DNA of 33,256 bases, taken from the NCBI GenBank assembly GCA_015222805.1, contig JADFVZ010000023.1, forward strand, positions 1-33,256, read 5' to 3'. The position numbers were made by a program, and so were the translations under genes. This document shows, piece by piece, positions 1 through 31,545 of the stretch. Each line of letters opens with the position of its first letter. Position 1 is the stretch's first letter. Below the pieces are notes generated by a model. It was not told the DNA's origin and searched no databases. It was given only the letters and a program-made list of their open reading frames with translations. The DNA comes from Pseudomonadota bacterium (GTDB lineage: Bacteria > Pseudomonadota > Gammaproteobacteria > Xanthomonadales > SZUA-36).

Positions 1-2476
1 TGATTTTTTCCGAGGCTATCTGGATTATCCCGTGCCGCAGTTCTTTGGTCATCAGCAGTTTGGCATCATTGGTAACAGACTCCAGGACCTCATCGAAGGT
101 TAGTTTGCCATCCTCATCCCGGCGCAATACGCTGGCTTTAGTGAGGTTGTTGATGAACTGTCGGAACAAGGTCTTATCGTAGAACTCCGGCGCATCAAAT
201 TCATGCAGCATGGAAATTCGCTGTGCAGTCAGGGTGCAGAGTTTTTCCAGTTCGCCGCGTGTAAGCACTCCCGAACCATTCTTCACCAGTACCGCGATAG
301 TAATAAAGTAGCGCTGGAATGTCTGCAGCATGCCTCGACCCATCAGGTTAAGGCTAGCGGCGGTCTCGCTGCCACCGCTGGCACGTTTGAGCGTACGCCT
401 GCCGGCAATCAGGTTAAGGGATTTCAGTGCATCGATATTATTAAGCAGCGCTTTGTCGGCATCGGCCCGATCCCAGGGCAGGAACAGCTCGCTGCGCATA
501 TAAGGATAAAGTGAATGAAACAGGCTTTGCAGGCGCGAACGTGAAATTTCAGATTGCATCTGGAAGCAGCTGGCAATAAATGAAGGTAGTGCAAACAGGT
601 GGGAAACATTGTTGCGGAAATAAGTCAGCAGCACGCCGGCATTATCGCTCACAGCAATAATATCACCAAGAGTGTGTTCGCGTTTTTCGATTACCCCCAG
701 CTCAATACCATAGCCAATAATTTCAACCGGGCTTAAATCAGTAATCGTAACCCGGGATGATAGGGGCGCACCTTTCAGGGTGTTGAGGTAAAGTTCCAGC
801 AATTGCTCAAGCTGGTCTTCAGCCAGGGTATGTTTTGTGCTGGCAAGCAGGCAGATAGCCAGCAGGTTAATAGGATTTACATCAGCCGTACGGTTGATGT
901 TAGTCATGATAGTGTTTGCCAGTTCATCAACCATCGAACTCAGCCACCTGGGCTTTTCTTCCGGGTTTTGACTGCGCCAGTCCGGCGCGGCTTTTTCCAG
1001 CATATCATCAAGTAAAATGGGCTCGCCAAAATTAACGTGTGCCTGCCCATAGTTTTTCCGCAGGACTTTAAACAGGCCCAGGAAATCCTTGAGGGATTCG
1101 GATTTCTTTTCTTTGCCGCCGAGTTCTGAAATATAGGAATTACCTTCCACCAGCTGCTCATAGCCAATATATACCGGTTGGAAAATGATCGGTTTGGTTG
1201 GTACCCGCATATAGGCCCGAACGGTCATTTGCAGCATGCCAGCTTTTGGCGGCAACAGGCGTCCGGTACGTGAGCGTGTGCCTTCAATAAAGTATTCGAT
1301 GGAAACACCCTGGCTGAGAATGAGAGTGAGGTACTCATCAAAGACGGCAGCATAAAGGGGGTTGGAGCGAAAACTGCGGCGCATAAAGAAAGCCCCGCCA
1401 CGACGCAGGAACTGGCCTACACCGGGCATGTTCAGGTTCACTCCGGCAGCAATATGCGGAGGTACATGACCATGGTGATAGAGCAGGTAGGACATCATCA
1501 GGTAATCGATATGGCTGCGATGACAGGGTACATAAATAATTTCTTTGCCGGGTGCCATTTCTTCAAAGGCTTTAAAATGATTAAGCTCAACACCTTTATA
1601 CAGTTTGTTCCAGAACCAGGTGAGAATTAGCGAACCGATTTTAACCGCGGAATATGAATAGTTCGCAGCAATTTCACGGATGCTTTTTTCAGCCAGTCTA
1701 CGGGCTTTCTCGGGACTAATTTTATCTTTTTTGGCTTTAACTGCGATAGCCGCCTGAACCCGCTCACTATCGAGCACCTTATTTAGCAGGGTGCGTCGAT
1801 GGGATAAATCCGGGCCAATAGAGGCTTCACGGGTTTTTCTTATCTGTGTACGCGCCAGCCTGGAAATTTTGCGTACAGCCTTGCCTGCACTGGCTTTCTC
1901 ATCGACCATTTCACGTAATGAAAAGGGCTTGCCGTAATAAACAAAGGTATTACGCCCGTTAATCAGGGTGCTGAACAGGCGCCGTAAGCGACCAGCAATT
2001 TCCCAGCTTTCGCTGAACATAATCTTGGTTATGGACTCTTCTTTATCCGGGGCGCGACCGATTAATACAGTCACTGGTACCAGTTGGACTTCAAAATCCG
2101 GATGGTCCTGCGCGTATTGGGTCAGCATTTTCAGCATATCGGAGCTGCGGCGATTGGTATAACGGCGCAGTAACAGGCCTTTCAACCGGCGCAAGGATGC
2201 CCACGAACGGCTACCTACACGATCACCGTTCTCTAGTGGGAACAGGGGCCGCGATAGGCTGTGTTTTTCGCAGGCTTTATCCAGTATCAGCAAGGATGAG
2301 AGCGAATAGGTATCCATGATGTAACAGGTGGGCACATCGTCCTTCAGGCCGGTATCGGTAACTGGCTCCGGTAGAACTTTACTGCGCACCCAGATATGCA
2401 GGATCGCACGTAGCATCAATTGCCAGTAAAGGTGCAGGCGCTGCCAGATAGAAAGCTGTTTGGGAAATGTTTTCAA
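1..2476 (-). CDS. plsB: Glycerol-3-phosphate 1-O-acyltransferase PlsB, C-terminal end cut by window edge
   Basis: This inner-membrane enzyme acylates sn-glycerol-3-phosphate at position 1 with acyl-CoA or acyl-ACP, the first step of phospholipid synthesis. The frame is open from about 2476 to the window edge (825 codons; E. coli PlsB has 807), so only a few C-terminal residues are missing. The acyltransferase HX4D motif reads HRSHID at residues 319–324, within PCHRSHIDYL, and is followed by PPHIAAG, FFMRRSF and the block EGTRSRTGRLLPPKAGML, all typical of PlsB. I see no usable ATG. A stop codon lies at 2485–2483 and the first candidate is TTG at 2476. The next in-frame ATG is codon 21, but similarity to E. 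coli PlsB already begins near residue 11 (WQRL, then VRSK), which favours the TTG. Family certain; start less so. Confidence 0.93.
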   Translation of the reverse strand, partial: MKTFPKQLSIWQRLHLYWQLMLRAILHIWVRSKVLPEPVTDTGLKDDVPTCYIMDTYSLSSLLILDKACEKHSLSRPLFPLENGDRVGSRSWASLRRLKGLLLRRYTNRRSSDMLKMLTQYAQDHPDFEVQLVPVTVLIGRAPDKEESITKIMFSESWEIAGRLRRLFSTLINGRNTFVYYGKPFSLREMVDEKASAGKAVRKISRLARTQIRKTREASIGPDLSHRRTLLNKVLDSERVQAAIAVKAKKDKISPEKARRLAEKSIREIAANYSYSAVKIGSLILTWFWNKLYKGVELNHFKAFEEMAPGKEIIYVPCHRSHIDYLMMSYLLYHHGHVPPHIAAGVNLNMPGVGQFLRRGGAFFMRRSFRSNPLYAAVFDEYLTLILSQGVSIEYFIEGTRSRTGRLLPPKAGMLQMTVRAYMRVPTKPIIFQPVYIGYEQLVEGNSYISELGGKEKKSESLKDFLGLFKVLRKNYGQAHVNFGEPILLDDMLEKAAPDWRSQNPEEKPRWLSSMVDELANTIMTNINRTADVNPINLLAICLLASTKHTLAEDQLEQLLELYLNTLKGAPLSSRVTITDLSPVEIIGYGIELGVIEKREHTLGDIIAVSDNAGVLLTYFRNNVSHLFALPSFIASCFQMQSEISRSRLQSLFHSLYPYMRSELFLPWDRADADKALLNNIDALKSLNLIAGRRTLKRASGGSETAASLNLMGRGMLQTFQRYFITIAVLVKNGSGVLTRGELEKLCTLTAQRISMLHEFDAPEFYDKTLFRQFINNLTKASVLRRDEDGKLTFDEVLESVTNDAKLLMTKELRHGIIQIASEKI

Positions 2477-2505
2477 AGTTTTCTATTAATAGCTGCAGGA
2501 GGGGT

Positions 2506-2514
2506 ATTTTAGCA
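2506..2514 (-). promoter_or_regulatory. Candidate extended −10 promoter of plsB
   Basis: On the minus strand the bases read TGC TAAAAT, an extended −10 pattern about 30 nt before the proposed TTG start of plsB. No good −35 hexamer is visible at 17 nt, which is tolerated in extended −10 promoters. This is inference from a short motif only. Confidence 0.3.
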
Positions 2515-2611
2515 ATATTCCCGGTTTGGTGTTTAGTCTGTGTTATTTGGGTTCACTATAGGCTTGAGGATCAGCCTGGAGTATAAATAAACAATATTAT
2601 CGGGGGCGGCG

Positions 2612-2830
2612 TGAAGGGATCGCTCTCGCGCGTCCATGCGCTTCGCGATCTACCTACAGCCCGGGCGGGGTGATTGGGTCGGGAGGCGAGCGCATGGCGC
2701 TGAGATGAATCTGCAGGACGCCGGGCTGGACTGAGAACCAATAGCCTTGGCTATTGGTCGAGGGAAGCCCAAGTCCTGCGGAATCAGATCAAGCCAGGAG
2801 CCGTCACCCGGCCCGATCACCTCGCCAAAG
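2612..2830 (+). repeat. Large multi-stem inverted-repeat element (structured RNA or dispersed repeat)
   Basis: No gene fits here. The stretch folds into nested arms. The core ACCAATAGCC (2737–2746) pairs with GGCTATTGGT (2749–2758) across a 2-nt loop. GGGCT (2723–2727) pairs with AGCCC (2766–2770). CTGCAGGAC (2711–2719) pairs with GTCCTGCGG (2773–2781). The outer 17-nt arm 2667–2683 pairs with 2807–2823. A side arm pairs 2634–2646 with 2685–2697. The three differences in the outer arm, and one in the CTGCAGGAC arm, are G·U pairs only if the plus strand is the RNA; as minus-strand RNA they would be A·C mismatches. It could be a non-coding RNA, a dispersed intergenic repeat or a dead mobile element. 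I do not recognise a named family. Confidence 0.6.
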
Positions 2831-2831
2831 C

Positions 2832-2870
2832 AAAAAAAAACCGGGTCAGACCAATAGATGGTCTACCCGG
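2832..2870 (-). terminator. Rho-independent terminator closing the pur–uvrD–pyrF series
   Basis: On the minus strand a stem CCGGGTAGACCA pairs with TGGTCTGACCCGG (one internal mismatch, short loop) and is followed directly by nine Ts. It lies about 195 nt past the pyrF stop and is the only strong intrinsic terminator downstream of that gene series. It might also end a separate small RNA transcribed from the AT-rich gap. Confidence 0.8.
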
Positions 2871-3065
2871 GAAGCCGGCAGAGCCGGAGAGGAACGGTGC
2901 AATGAGGCGTTTTTTATGTAGTTATCGCCTCTGTATTTAACGGATACATTTTGCATTAGGTGCGCTTTATTATTATTGTTGCGCGTCAAAATAATAACTT
3001 AAAACACATACATAATGCAACACATTAATAAACATGCTGTAACTGCATGATATATATAGCATGTA
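2871..3065 (-). other. AT-rich gap between pyrF and its terminator
   Basis: No coding frame with good initiation is seen. On the minus strand the stretch starts AT-rich. It then carries GAGGCG (around 2935) pairing with CGCCTC (around 2912), and a small CCGGC/GCCGG hairpin just before the terminator. It is either a long 3' untranslated region of pyrF or the body of a small RNA; no convincing promoter was found. Confidence 0.35.
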
Positions 3066-3794
3066 TTAGATAAAACTAGAGGCAATATCAGCCTGGATAG
3101 CTTCTGCGGCGGCTTTCGGGTCGGCTGCAGCACGGATTGGGCGGCCAACAACGATGTAATCAGCACCATTTGCAAAGGCTTCGCGTACAGTAACCACGCG
3201 TTTTTGATCATCATCGTTGGCAATCGGTCGAATACCGGGGCAAACAGTGATCAGGGCGTTATCAACACTTTTTCTGAGTTCGTTGACTTCAAGTCCGGAG
3301 GAAACCACCCCCGCACAACCCAGTTCGAGTGCACGGCGGGCGCGTGAAAGCACCAGGGTCTGGGCATCTACCTTGAAACCGAGGTCATTGAGGTCGCCCT
3401 GGTCGAGGCTGGTGAGTGCGGTTACTGCCAGCACTTTCATATCACCGCTGGCATCGACTGCAGCTTTGAGCATGCCGTCATTGCCGTGCACGGTACAGAA
3501 ATCAATGCCGTGGCGGGACAGTTGGCGCACGGCTGAGGCGACTGTCGCCGGGACATCAAAGAACTTCAGGTCGGCAAAGATTTTTTTGCCCTGGCCTTTG
3601 AGTTCCTGCATTAATTCAAAATAGTGGCCGCTGAGGAAAAATTCCAGGCCGAGCTTGTAGAACTGCACACTGTCACCGAGGGTATTCACCAGTTTGCGAG
3701 CCGTGTCGATATCAGCCACATCGAGGGCGAACATCAGGCGTTCGTTGGCAGGGATGTCGCGGTTTTTGGTTATTGCGCTTACTTGATCAGTCAT
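3066..3794 (-). CDS. pyrF: Orotidine 5'-phosphate decarboxylase
   Basis: This cytosolic enzyme converts OMP to UMP, the last step of de novo pyrimidine synthesis. The catalytic Asp-x-Lys-x-x-Asp signature reads DLKFFD at residues 75–80 (K77 is the catalytic lysine), the phosphate-binding end reads VVGRPI, and TPGIRP appears as CPGIRP. Length is 242 aa, as in E. coli (245). An upstream in-frame ATG at 3800 would add two residues. I prefer 3794 because a GAG Shine–Dalgarno-like triplet lies 6 nt before it. The start overlaps the end of the upstream hydrolase gene by 8 nt, so translation is probably coupled. It is the last gene of the purH–purD–uvrD–hydrolase series and precedes the terminator at 2832–2870. 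Pyrimidine and purine genes are usually separate, so this linkage is somewhat unusual. Confidence 0.95.
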   Translation of the reverse strand: MTDQVSAITKNRDIPANERLMFALDVADIDTARKLVNTLGDSVQFYKLGLEFFLSGHYFELMQELKGQGKKIFADLKFFDVPATVASAVRQLSRHGIDFCTVHGNDGMLKAAVDASGDMKVLAVTALTSLDQGDLNDLGFKVDAQTLVLSRARRALELGCAGVVSSGLEVNELRKSVDNALITVCPGIRPIANDDDQKRVVTVREAFANGADYIVVGRPIRAAADPKAAAEAIQADIASSFI

Positions 3795-4719
3795 TTTCAT
3801 CTCGCTTCAGGTGGTTGGCAATATGGCTGCGAACTACTTCTGCCGTTTGTTGCGGATGCTGCATATGTAAATGGTGGTGGCCTTTGATGCAGACTATTTT
3901 TTCAGCATGGGCAGCTTGTATGCGTTTTTCCATAACCTTCTTATCCACGAAATCCGGTAGCGGATCACCGTGTAGGAATAATAGCGGAACCTGGATATCA
4001 GCCATCATTTCGAGGATCTGAGTTTCACTATAGCGATTCGGACTGATATGCATCAGCCGAGGATCCGTTGACCAGCGCCAGCCTTTGTTGCCTTCTTCAT
4101 CTACAGCTTCTTCAAGGCTGCGTTCCACCAGGATACGCGCCAGTTCATTTTCCATGCCACCGCTTTTGGCGCGCACCAAGGTCGCCTGGTCAATGCTTTC
4201 AAAGACTCGCAATTGCTTGTCTTCCAGCTTGTTCAGTGAGTCCAGGGCCTTGCGCAGGCGCTGGCTGTTTTCGCCGGTGGTATCGGCCAGCGGGCCCAGG
4301 CCTTCGATAATACTCATAGAAAGCAGGGTTTCCGGCATCGCCGCAGCCCACAGGCCGGATACGACACCACCCAGTGAATGCCCCAGCAGATGGAAGCTTT
4401 TCCAGTGGTCATTGCCGGTAGATAAATGTTTAACCAATAAAGCCACGTCTTCGAGGTAATCCACCAGATGATACCAGAGCTTGCCCGCACGCCAGTCTGA
4501 ATGGCCGTGGCCGGGAAAGTCGATGGCAATAATTTCACAGTCGGGCAGGTATTCCGCCATCGGCTTGAAAGTGGCTGCATTATCCAGCCAGCCGTGCAGC
4601 GCCAGTACCCTGGGTGTTTCAGTAGTTATTACTTCAGGCTGCCAGTGCAATCCGGCGAGTACTCCGTTGCGTGTTTCCAGGCAAAATTCTTTTACCGGCC
4701 GGCTTATCTTTATGTCCAT
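3787..4719 (-). CDS. Alpha/beta-fold hydrolase (serine hydrolase-like, MhpC/SERHL type)
   Basis: A cytosolic alpha/beta hydrolase of 310 aa with no signal peptide; its substrate cannot be told from sequence. The oxyanion region LHGWLDN (residues 41–47) and the strand DFPGHGHSD are followed by the nucleophile elbow GHSLGG (113–118, Ser115). A later LFLHGDPLPDF holds the likely acid, and KGHHHLHMQHP supplies the catalytic His. The layout resembles eukaryotic serine hydrolase-like proteins (SERHL) and bacterial esterases. The ATG at 4719 overlaps the uvrD stop as TAATG, which argues for this start; a longer frame to 4758 would run into uvrD. Its end overlaps pyrF. Its place between a DNA repair helicase and a nucleotide gene looks like operon hitch-hiking and gives no clear role. 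Confidence 0.88.
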   Translation of the reverse strand: MDIKISRPVKEFCLETRNGVLAGLHWQPEVITTETPRVLALHGWLDNAATFKPMAEYLPDCEIIAIDFPGHGHSDWRAGKLWYHLVDYLEDVALLVKHLSTGNDHWKSFHLLGHSLGGVVSGLWAAAMPETLLSMSIIEGLGPLADTTGENSQRLRKALDSLNKLEDKQLRVFESIDQATLVRAKSGGMENELARILVERSLEEAVDEEGNKGWRWSTDPRLMHISPNRYSETQILEMMADIQVPLLFLHGDPLPDFVDKKVMEKRIQAAHAEKIVCIKGHHHLHMQHPQQTAEVVRSHIANHLKRDEND

Positions 4720-31299: not shown

Positions 31300-31545
31300 C
31301 CGGCAGTGATGCTGTCGGAATTGTTTCAGGTGATGTCTGGGTAACAAAAGTTAGTCAGCATTGAAACGGGAAGCCGGTTAAAGTCCGGCACTGCCCCCGC
31401 AACGGTAAGCGGTTGAAGCGATACATATGGAATTTAGTTCATCAAGAATTCAATTTCCTGGCCACTGGATGTATTCCGGGAAGGCGTATCGCAGAAACAT
31501 TAATCGCAAGTCCGGAGACCGGCCTGATGATATTGAACGGCAAGT
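31300..31545 (+). ncRNA. Cobalamin riboswitch (B12 element)
   Basis: The leader of btuB carries the conserved core of the cobalamin riboswitch. It has GGGAAGCCGG, then TCCGGCACTGCCCCCGCAAC and GGTAAGCGG, then CCACTGG with CCGGGAAGGCG. The B12 box AAGTCCGGAGACCGGCC lies at about 31508–31524. TCAGG near 31325 can pair with CCTGA after the B12 box to close the aptamer. Adenosylcobalamin binding would shut off translation or transcription of the outer-membrane B12 receptor. The ends are approximate; the core is unmistakable. Confidence 0.93.

What the first reader, a model, noticed from the sequence alone, without database searches (positions are those of the whole stretch)
2612..2830. Multi-stem palindromic element whose wobble pairs point to a plus-strand RNA
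Nested arms span about 160 nt around a 10-bp core with a 2-nt loop, plus a side arm at 2634–2697. In the 17-nt outer arm, all three departures from perfect pairing are G·U if the plus strand is RNA, but A·C if the minus strand is. One departure in the inner CTGCAGGAC arm behaves the same way. Selection for RNA pairing on one strand would leave such a trace, and simple decay of a DNA repeat would not favour a strand. It may be an undescribed structured RNA or a family of structured intergenic repeats.
Basis: partly seen in the sequence, partly recalled or inferred. Interest (0 to 1): 0.6.

Follow-up and report, generated by a model that had tools for sequence, protein, structure and literature searches.

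The report
Mobile repeat carrying a structured RNA
The hairpin is one copy of a small mobile DNA element, scattered through many gammaproteobacteria, whose middle part has been kept in evolution as a specific folded shape formed by one DNA strand only, which suggests that it carries an undescribed structured RNA.

Summary
In detail: fold z -7.8, outer-arm departures G·U on the plus strand. It is two repeats side by side: a REP-like repeat (2604-2661) and a long palindromic element (about 2662-2826) with a core at 2692-2800. A covariance model of the core hits 31 of 121 genomes (own and relatives) and 29 of 369 drawn from the class. In 35 diverse copies 28 of 33 pairs change on both sides (covariation 0.56; 0.20 shuffled; at most 0.10 slid). 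In 112 unique cores G·U outnumbers A·C 218 to 50; the plus strand folds better in 156 of 161. In 103 of 161 copies both ends resemble those of IS1380-family insertion sequences: IS1380-type MITEs with a strand-specific structured module. The window copy has other ends. It is missing from one sister species' plsB-pyrF gap and inverted beside another's pyrF terminator, so it does not serve those genes. By heuristic gene calls, the gene on the core's 3' side points towards it in 97 of 127 copies, against 106 of 202 other gaps. RNA rather than single-stranded DNA is likely, not shown.

The parts
2604..2661 (-). Module A: REP-like repeat; hairpin GATCGC 2618-2623 / GCGATC 2645-2650, preceded on the minus strand by GTAGGTA
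   Evidence: Copies in own genome at C51 (two strong), C15 and C1, more in G001 and G003; copies in L002, L004, L005, L027 stand against an A-tract plus hairpin
2662..2826 (+). Element B: whole palindromic element, the unit equivalent to the dispersed MITE of other genera (left boundary approximate)
   Evidence: Arms; with module A, an 86% identical copy in G001 and an 80% identical one in G003
2664..2688 (+). Left outer arm (pairs with 2802-2826); four G·U, one A·A departure
2802..2826 (+). Right outer arm
2692..2800 (+). Conserved structured core (model R1, 99.4 bits): helices H1 2695-2698/2793-2796, H2 2705-2712/2780-2787 (6 of 8 positions pair in this copy), H3 2714-2719/2773-2778, H4 2723-2727/2766-2770, H5 2737-2746/2749-2758
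   Evidence: Alignments and model (this copy is in the training set); pair counts over the family
2728..2736 (+). 5' side of the purine-rich internal loop between H4 and H5 (GGACTGAGA)
   Evidence: Conserved in 21 copies found without the letter pattern and, where part of it was fixed by the search pattern
2760..2765 (+). 3' side of the same loop (GAGGGA)
2832..2870 (-). Minus-strand intrinsic terminator by eye: hairpin 2841-2870, T-tract 2840-2832; the element's right end lies just beyond the T-tract
   Evidence: Hairpin predicted; conserved in the sister locus L027. The simple terminator scan did not list it (its stem has a bulge) and listed another at 3033-3049
3066..3800 (-). pyrF (orotidine 5'-phosphate decarboxylase)
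   Evidence: PF00215, 3.7e-48
2..2476 (-). plsB-like glycerol-3-phosphate acyltransferase (incomplete at the window edge)
   Evidence: PF19277 5e-100, PF01553 1e-27

Best explanation
The segment is a copy of a non-autonomous mobile element (a MITE) whose 108-nt core has been maintained as a specific rod with fixed internal loops, formed by the plus strand. Shown: dispersal, copy-number differences, presence/absence between sister species, compensatory changes, strand preference, and in most relatives ends like those of IS1380-family elements found in the same bacterial family. Inferred: an IS1380-family transposase moves most of the family; the window lineage has exchanged or lost those ends and sits with a REP-like repeat beside a terminator. 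Also inferred: the core works as an RNA for the element itself, not for the neighbouring genes. The polar placement (the gene on the core's 3' side usually points towards it, with no rule on the 5' side) is what one expects if a plus-strand transcript leaves the right end and insertions that would send it into a gene start are weeded out.
For: Fold z -7.8. Core hits in 31 of 121 genomes, own included, in 29 of 369 drawn from the class, and in 7 of 299 from the phylum, five of them in one family outside the class at 30-40 bits. 35 copies: 90.8% of cells paired, 28 of 33 pairs with two-sided change, covariation 0.560 against 0.199 (sd 0.012) shuffled and 0.07-0.10 slid, 0 of 500 shuffles. 54 copies not used to build the model: 87.9% Watson-Crick in register, 14-22% slid; G·U 97, A·C 18. 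112 unique 108-nt cores: 218 G·U, 50 A·C; 88 copies with more G·U, 7 with more A·C, 17 even; without H2 87 to 34. Plus strand more stable in 156 of 161, mean 11.6 kcal/mol. Outer arms 78 G·U, 30 A·C in the 86 copies whose arms passed the score cut. IS1380-type ends (at most 5 mismatches) at both ends in 103 of 161, one end in 41, neither in 17; the full-length IS L221 has ends TAGCCCGCATTTCTCAC / TAGCCCGGATTTCTCAC, L220 similar, and three transposases are IS1380 by NF033539. Right-hand gene points at the element 97 to 30, left-hand 55 to 69; other gaps of the same loci 106 of 202; clustered at 65% core identity 20 to 6. Sister-locus absence and inversion.
Against: No transcript was seen, and the sigma-70-type scan found no plus-strand site in 2450-3070. 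Single-stranded DNA would leave the same pairing trace. The helices were taken from a plus-strand RNAalifold, which favours G·U; a first machine-placed set of pairs gave 64 G·U to 73 A·C, and H1 alone shows no lean (9 to 10). The window copy lacks IS1380-type ends, and its own genome (86% complete) has no PF13701 gene. The core was not found in the six IS1380 loci searched. IS ends other than those of L221 and L220 match with 5 of 18 mismatches, and stray sites with 6 occur in the same loci. Four-base target duplications: 30 of 117 identical, 19.8 expected by shuffling, shuffles reach 31. In co-directional settings the host's read-through RNA would mostly be the minus strand (47 '--', 13 '++'). 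90 of 121 genomes and 340 of 369 gave no match, so the element is patchy.
Confidence: 0.66

Rival explanations
1. The folded form is single-stranded DNA of the plus strand, recognised by a recombinase or transposase during movement, as REP hairpins are by RAYT enzymes. No RNA function exists.
For: G·T pairs are tolerated in DNA hairpins (general knowledge); the element is mobile; the strand polarity of insertions fits a strand-specific mechanism; direct contact with a minus-strand terminator was seen at the right end in 5 of 81 and at the left in 0 of 81.
Against: Most copies have IS1380-type terminal repeats, which a DDE transposase would be expected to use as double-stranded DNA; none of the 12 Y1_Tnp loci examined carries the core.
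Confidence: 0.25
2. An ordinary palindromic MITE without structural selection: arms stay alike through repair by template switching between arms, and the wobble pattern is chance.
Against: Template switching would be expected to erase internal loops, yet fixed loops between H3/H4 and H4/H5 are conserved in copies found without the pattern, and G·U exceeds A·C over the family. Sliding and shuffling controls.
Confidence: 0.05
3. A cis-acting RNA for pyrF or plsB (leader, terminator or processing site).
For: Lies between the two genes and beside a terminator.
Against: The core is not found in the syntenic plsB-pyrF gap of G002 (L281) and is inverted beside the orthologous pyrF terminator of G001, where no plsB match lies on the left; the folded strand is antisense to both genes.
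Confidence: 0.02
4. A REP/REPIN-type array moved by a RAYT transposase.
For: Module A has a GTAG tag next to a hairpin and several copies.
Against: Applies at most to module A; element B does not have the short GTAG-tagged hairpin anatomy, and the RAYT-like locus L043 of the own genome carries neither module A nor the core. The second own-genome Y1_Tnp locus (C91) was not examined.
Confidence: 0.02

Closest known systems
MITEs such as ERIC, Correia, RUP, QMITE1/2 (review PMC10969869 and PMC5896051, found passages seen)
   Same: Short non-autonomous dispersed palindromic elements with terminal inverted repeats, mostly intergenic; QMITEs of Coxiella give rise to small RNAs (PMC5896051)
   Different: Ends are of IS1380 type in most copies; an internal module with fixed loops, two-sided covariation over many bacterial families, and a strand preference. 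The word IS1380 occurs in neither text
IS1380-family insertion sequences
   Same: Terminal repeats TAGCCCGxATxTTTCA-like in elements of related bacteria
   Different: No transposase gene in the short elements; the core was not found in the six IS1380 loci searched
GTAG-tagged REPs (PMC3733652, abstract and passages seen)
   Same: Module A: GTAG beside a short hairpin, downstream of genes
   Different: Element B is far longer and of different build; no RAYT association found here
Transposon-borne structured RNAs such as HEARO or bridge RNAs (recalled, not tested by call beyond Rfam)
   Same: A conserved structured RNA riding on a mobile element
   Different: No nuclease or transposase gene within the element; no Rfam match at the gathering score

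Membership tests
MITE | Terminal inverted repeats, no transposase gene, a few hundred bp at most (definition recalled) | tested here: met
   Outer arms in 86 copies that passed the score cut, out of 108 hits entered with duplicates; lengths mostly 160-300 bp (a few arms set by the aligner run to 477), 238-298 in 53 distinct long forms
MITE | Dispersed multicopy, presence/absence between relatives | tested here: met
   Up to 14 copies per genome; no core in the sister locus L281
IS1380-type MITE | Ends matching an IS1380-family IS | tested here: inconclusive
   Met for most of the family: 103 of 161 both ends, 41 one end, 17 neither (at most 5 mismatches, no shuffled control); IS ends, closest in L221. 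Not met by the window copy itself
IS1380-type MITE | Short target duplication (4-5 bp, recalled) | tested here: inconclusive
   4-bp identity 30 of 117, shuffled mean 19.8, maximum 31; CTAG is the commonest flank on both sides
IS1380-type MITE | Movement by an IS1380 transposase | not testable with these tools
   needs a transposition assay
Structured RNA family | Compensatory changes above shuffled and slid controls | tested here: met
Structured RNA family | Strand-specific wobble pairs | tested here: met
   against: and H1
Structured RNA family | Transcription of that strand | not testable with these tools
   no RNA data; no sigma-70-type site on the plus strand
Known Rfam family | Score above the gathering threshold | tested here: not met
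   Window and ten loci with model hits at gathering; window and L030 at relaxed threshold. Best at the element: RyfD 17.7 bits against 42 required
REP/REPIN with RAYT | Association with a RAYT gene | tested here: not met
   0 core hits in 12 Y1_Tnp loci; no module A at L043 or L048 (a weak 47-nt match at L047)

The most novel reading that the evidence does not exclude
A previously undescribed class of structured RNA is carried and spread by IS1380-type miniature elements in gammaproteobacteria; it is transcribed from the element towards its right end, and both its fold and the polarity of surviving insertions are under selection for the element's own propagation.
Probability: 0.35. Interest if true: 0.8.

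Novelty: new variant of a known kind. Interest (0 to 1): 0.58.

Why it matters
Bacterial MITEs are usually treated as relics held together by their ends. Here the inside is conserved across different frames: the same looped rod recurs within several different outer palindromes and in many bacterial families, with strand-specific wobble pairs. That makes a testable case that a small selfish element depends on a folded RNA (or a folded single strand), and the polarity next to genes gives a second, separate handle. The model also lets annotators recognise a repeat for which I found no name.

Tried and rejected
Rfam at gathering and relaxed thresholds: nothing credible at the element; RyfD 17.7 bits (threshold 42) and rsmX 14.6 (56) at 2649-2825. 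RAYT mobilisation: 12 Y1_Tnp loci without the core. Hammerhead, twister-sister, SRP RNA and glycine riboswitch were considered from recalled motifs only and dropped, because the relaxed Rfam scans of one window stretch and one relative showed no such hit. Cis-regulation of plsB/pyrF: rejected on sister loci. Plasmids: no match for two queries at E 1e-5.

Results against the reading. A strand-neutral pairing by a simple dynamic programme gave no lean: 64 G·U, 73 A·C in 54 copies, 13 copies leaning to G·U and 21 to A·C. It had placed pairs off register around the loops, so I replaced it by contiguous helices from the plus-strand RNAalifold. Within the 14 outer pairs, outside the search pattern, gave 45 to 12, and the apical hairpin 13 to 10. 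With the final helices H2 carries most of the excess (131 to 16 of 218 to 50) and H1 shows none (9 to 10). The gap control used an arbitrary locus strand and included the elements' own gaps; I replaced it.

Heuristic gene calls: 24 of 103 copies lay inside open frames of 90 codons or more; frames overlapping the core were dropped before counting, six of them longer than 900 nt.

Papers: PMC3733652 (abstract and passages), PMC3116915, PMC10969869, PMC4853749 and PMC5896051 (passages) were seen; all others as listings with the start of the abstract. None that I saw describes these ends or this repeat; the library lacks preprints and most subscription journals.

Rows dropped before counts: 11 of 89 hits (three cut off by a contig end, five second or partial weak hits, three opposite-strand shadows) and 5 of 66. 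The 169 pooled hits include copies reached by two routes; identical cores were counted once. Only 108-nt cores entered the wobble counts: 112 of the unique ones, out of 161.

Full report
What is there. The window is contig C109 of an incomplete genome of 2.9 Mb. Its same-genus relative G001 holds a contig of 58,277 bp that matches, in length and in hit coordinates, the record JAKITK010000014.1 titled Lysobacterales bacterium D96SM.bin.4, so the window probably comes from an uncultured member of that order. The feature lies between plsB and pyrF, both on the minus strand. It has two parts. Module A (2604-2661) is a short REP-like repeat with other copies in the same genome; the copies in L002, L004, L005 and L027 stand beside an A-tract followed by a hairpin, that is, downstream of what look like minus-strand terminators. 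Element B (about 2662-2826) is a long imperfect palindrome. Compared with uninterrupted module A copies, B stands in the place of the small hairpin CCTACATCCATGTAGG between module A and the A-tract (read).

Is it more than chance? Yes. The plus strand folds at -139 kcal/mol with z -7.8 and none of 200 shuffles as stable; the minus strand also folds, z -7.2. The outer arm's departures are four G·U and one A·A, no A·C.

The family. BLASTN split the segment: module A copies chiefly in the own genus, core copies across the bacterial family. Aligned copies gave a consensus rod. RNAalifold energy was -42.7 for the plus strand and -21.3 for the minus strand of the same 22 sequences. A covariance model (R1; the window copy is in its training set) hit 31 of 121 genomes, own included, with up to 14 copies; 29 of 369 drawn from the class; and 7 of 299 from the phylum, two of them already known and five from one family outside the class at 30-40 bits. 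These scans score a limited number of candidates per genome, so misses are possible. That pattern fixes letters in the inner core, so conservation there is by construction; helices H1, H2 and H5 were free.

Structure. With 35 sequences (the window and 34 representatives below 80% identity to each other) 90.8% of cells pair (71.7% shuffled), 28 of 33 pairs have two-sided changes, and the covariation score is 0.560 against 0.199 shuffled and at most 0.100 slid. Fixed internal loops separate the helices, notably GCN/AA between H3 and H4 and GGANYGA/GARNGA between H4 and H5; both are conserved in the 21 copies collected without the pattern.

Which strand? In 54 copies not used for the model G·U is 97 and A·C 18; in all 112 unique 108-nt cores 218 and 50; in 34 representatives 81 and 27, with 26 copies leaning to G·U, 5 to A·C and 3 even. 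By helix, over the 112: H1 9 to 10, H2 131 to 16, H3 30 to 15, H4 17 to 0, H5 31 to 9; so H2 carries most of it, and without H2 it is 87 to 34, or 39 to 17 in the representatives. The plus strand is more stable in 156 of 161 cores. The outer arms lean the same way more weakly, 78 to 30. The helices came from a plus-strand fold, which favours G·U; machine-placed Watson-Crick pairs showed no overall lean (64 to 73), but were off register near the loops. The trace is strong but not pure, and relatedness makes simple p values too small. Deamination on an exposed non-template strand should push the other way, because the plus strand is mostly the template strand of the gene on its right (inference).

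Ends and mobility. Most copies begin CTAGCCCGCATNTTNCACC and end with its inverse: both ends in 103 of 161, one end in 41, neither in 17. I recalled that IS1380 ends look like this and tested it. PF13701 genes occur in 10 of 61 genomes, none in the own genome. L221, a full-length IS1380 element of 1740 bp, ends in TAGCCCGCATTTCTCAC and TAGCCCGGATTTCTCAC; L220 (1685 bp) is similar; L222 and L229 (the latter with a broken transposase gene) match less well, 5 of 18 positions off. Three transposases, L220, L221 and L222, are IS1380 by NCBIfam. The core was not found in the six such loci searched. Among copies with a recognisable right end 113 are long and 15 short; distinct long forms are 238-298 bp, short ones about 160. 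Flanks are rich in CTAG; a four-base duplication is only suggestive. Some copies, the window's included, have other outer arms. At the same genes, G002 has no core between plsB and pyrF, while G001 has it inverted between two module A copies beside the pyrF terminator, with a different left neighbour.

Polarity. With heuristic gene calls (open frames of 130 codons or more within 700 nt), 163 copies gave 97 right-hand genes on the minus strand and 30 on the plus strand; left-hand genes were 55 plus and 69 minus. Other gaps of the same loci, oriented by the element, have 106 of 202 right-hand genes on the minus strand. The bias stays at every clustering level tried, down to 20 to 6 at 65% core identity, and at other thresholds. 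Direct contact with a terminator was found at the right end in 5 of 81 and at the left in 0 of 81, controls 0 of 159 on each strand; the script missed the window's own, so 5 is a low count. A gene start is therefore tolerated on the left but seldom on the right. A transcript leaving the right end would explain this; so would a polar insertion mechanism.

Verdict. The observation and the main point of the interpretation hold. The family is a MITE family of IS1380 type in most copies, with an inner module selected for a plus-strand fold. RNA is my preferred reading, single-stranded DNA the main rival. I found no Rfam match and no description in the open-access library searched.

Noticed in passing
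31311-31541 (+): Cobalamin riboswitch, RF00174, 102.4 bits.
   Followed up: no
L089, L090, L094, L095, L098 (G018, G008); L084-L086 (G040); L264-L269 (G241): Sister elements of about 245-320 bp with similar IS1380-type ends but a different, also asymmetric, structured core (GATCGC...CATAGC/GCTATG...GGATC in several); G241, a one-contig genome, had seven hits.
   Followed up: partly
L258-L263 (family f210, outside the class): Weaker relatives, most with a left end like CTAGCCCGGATATTTCACGAG, sharing the outermost helix and its loop (TGGCGCAGGACAG ... GAACAAGCCA).
   Followed up: partly
Right part of long-form copies, between core and right end: An ACAAACTGTA-like motif (up to 2 mismatches) in 63 of 113 long forms; 10 of 143 shuffled 110-nt flanks.
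   Followed up: partly
2604-2661 and L002, L004, L005, L027: Module A copies repeatedly stand immediately downstream of apparent intrinsic terminators, one beside a gene whose end reads like the GGM tail of groEL (the gene name is from recall).
   Followed up: partly
L043 (own genome C35), L044, L046: RAYT-like Y1 transposase genes flanked by inverted GGGGTCAG... repeats, apparently unrelated to this element.
   Followed up: no
L070, L073, L067: Copies of the core framed by another kind of end, TAGTGGNCTGNAA, in three different bacterial families.
   Followed up: no
L075:78-174 (-): t44 RNA, RF00127, 58.1 bits, near a diverged copy of the core.
   Followed up: no
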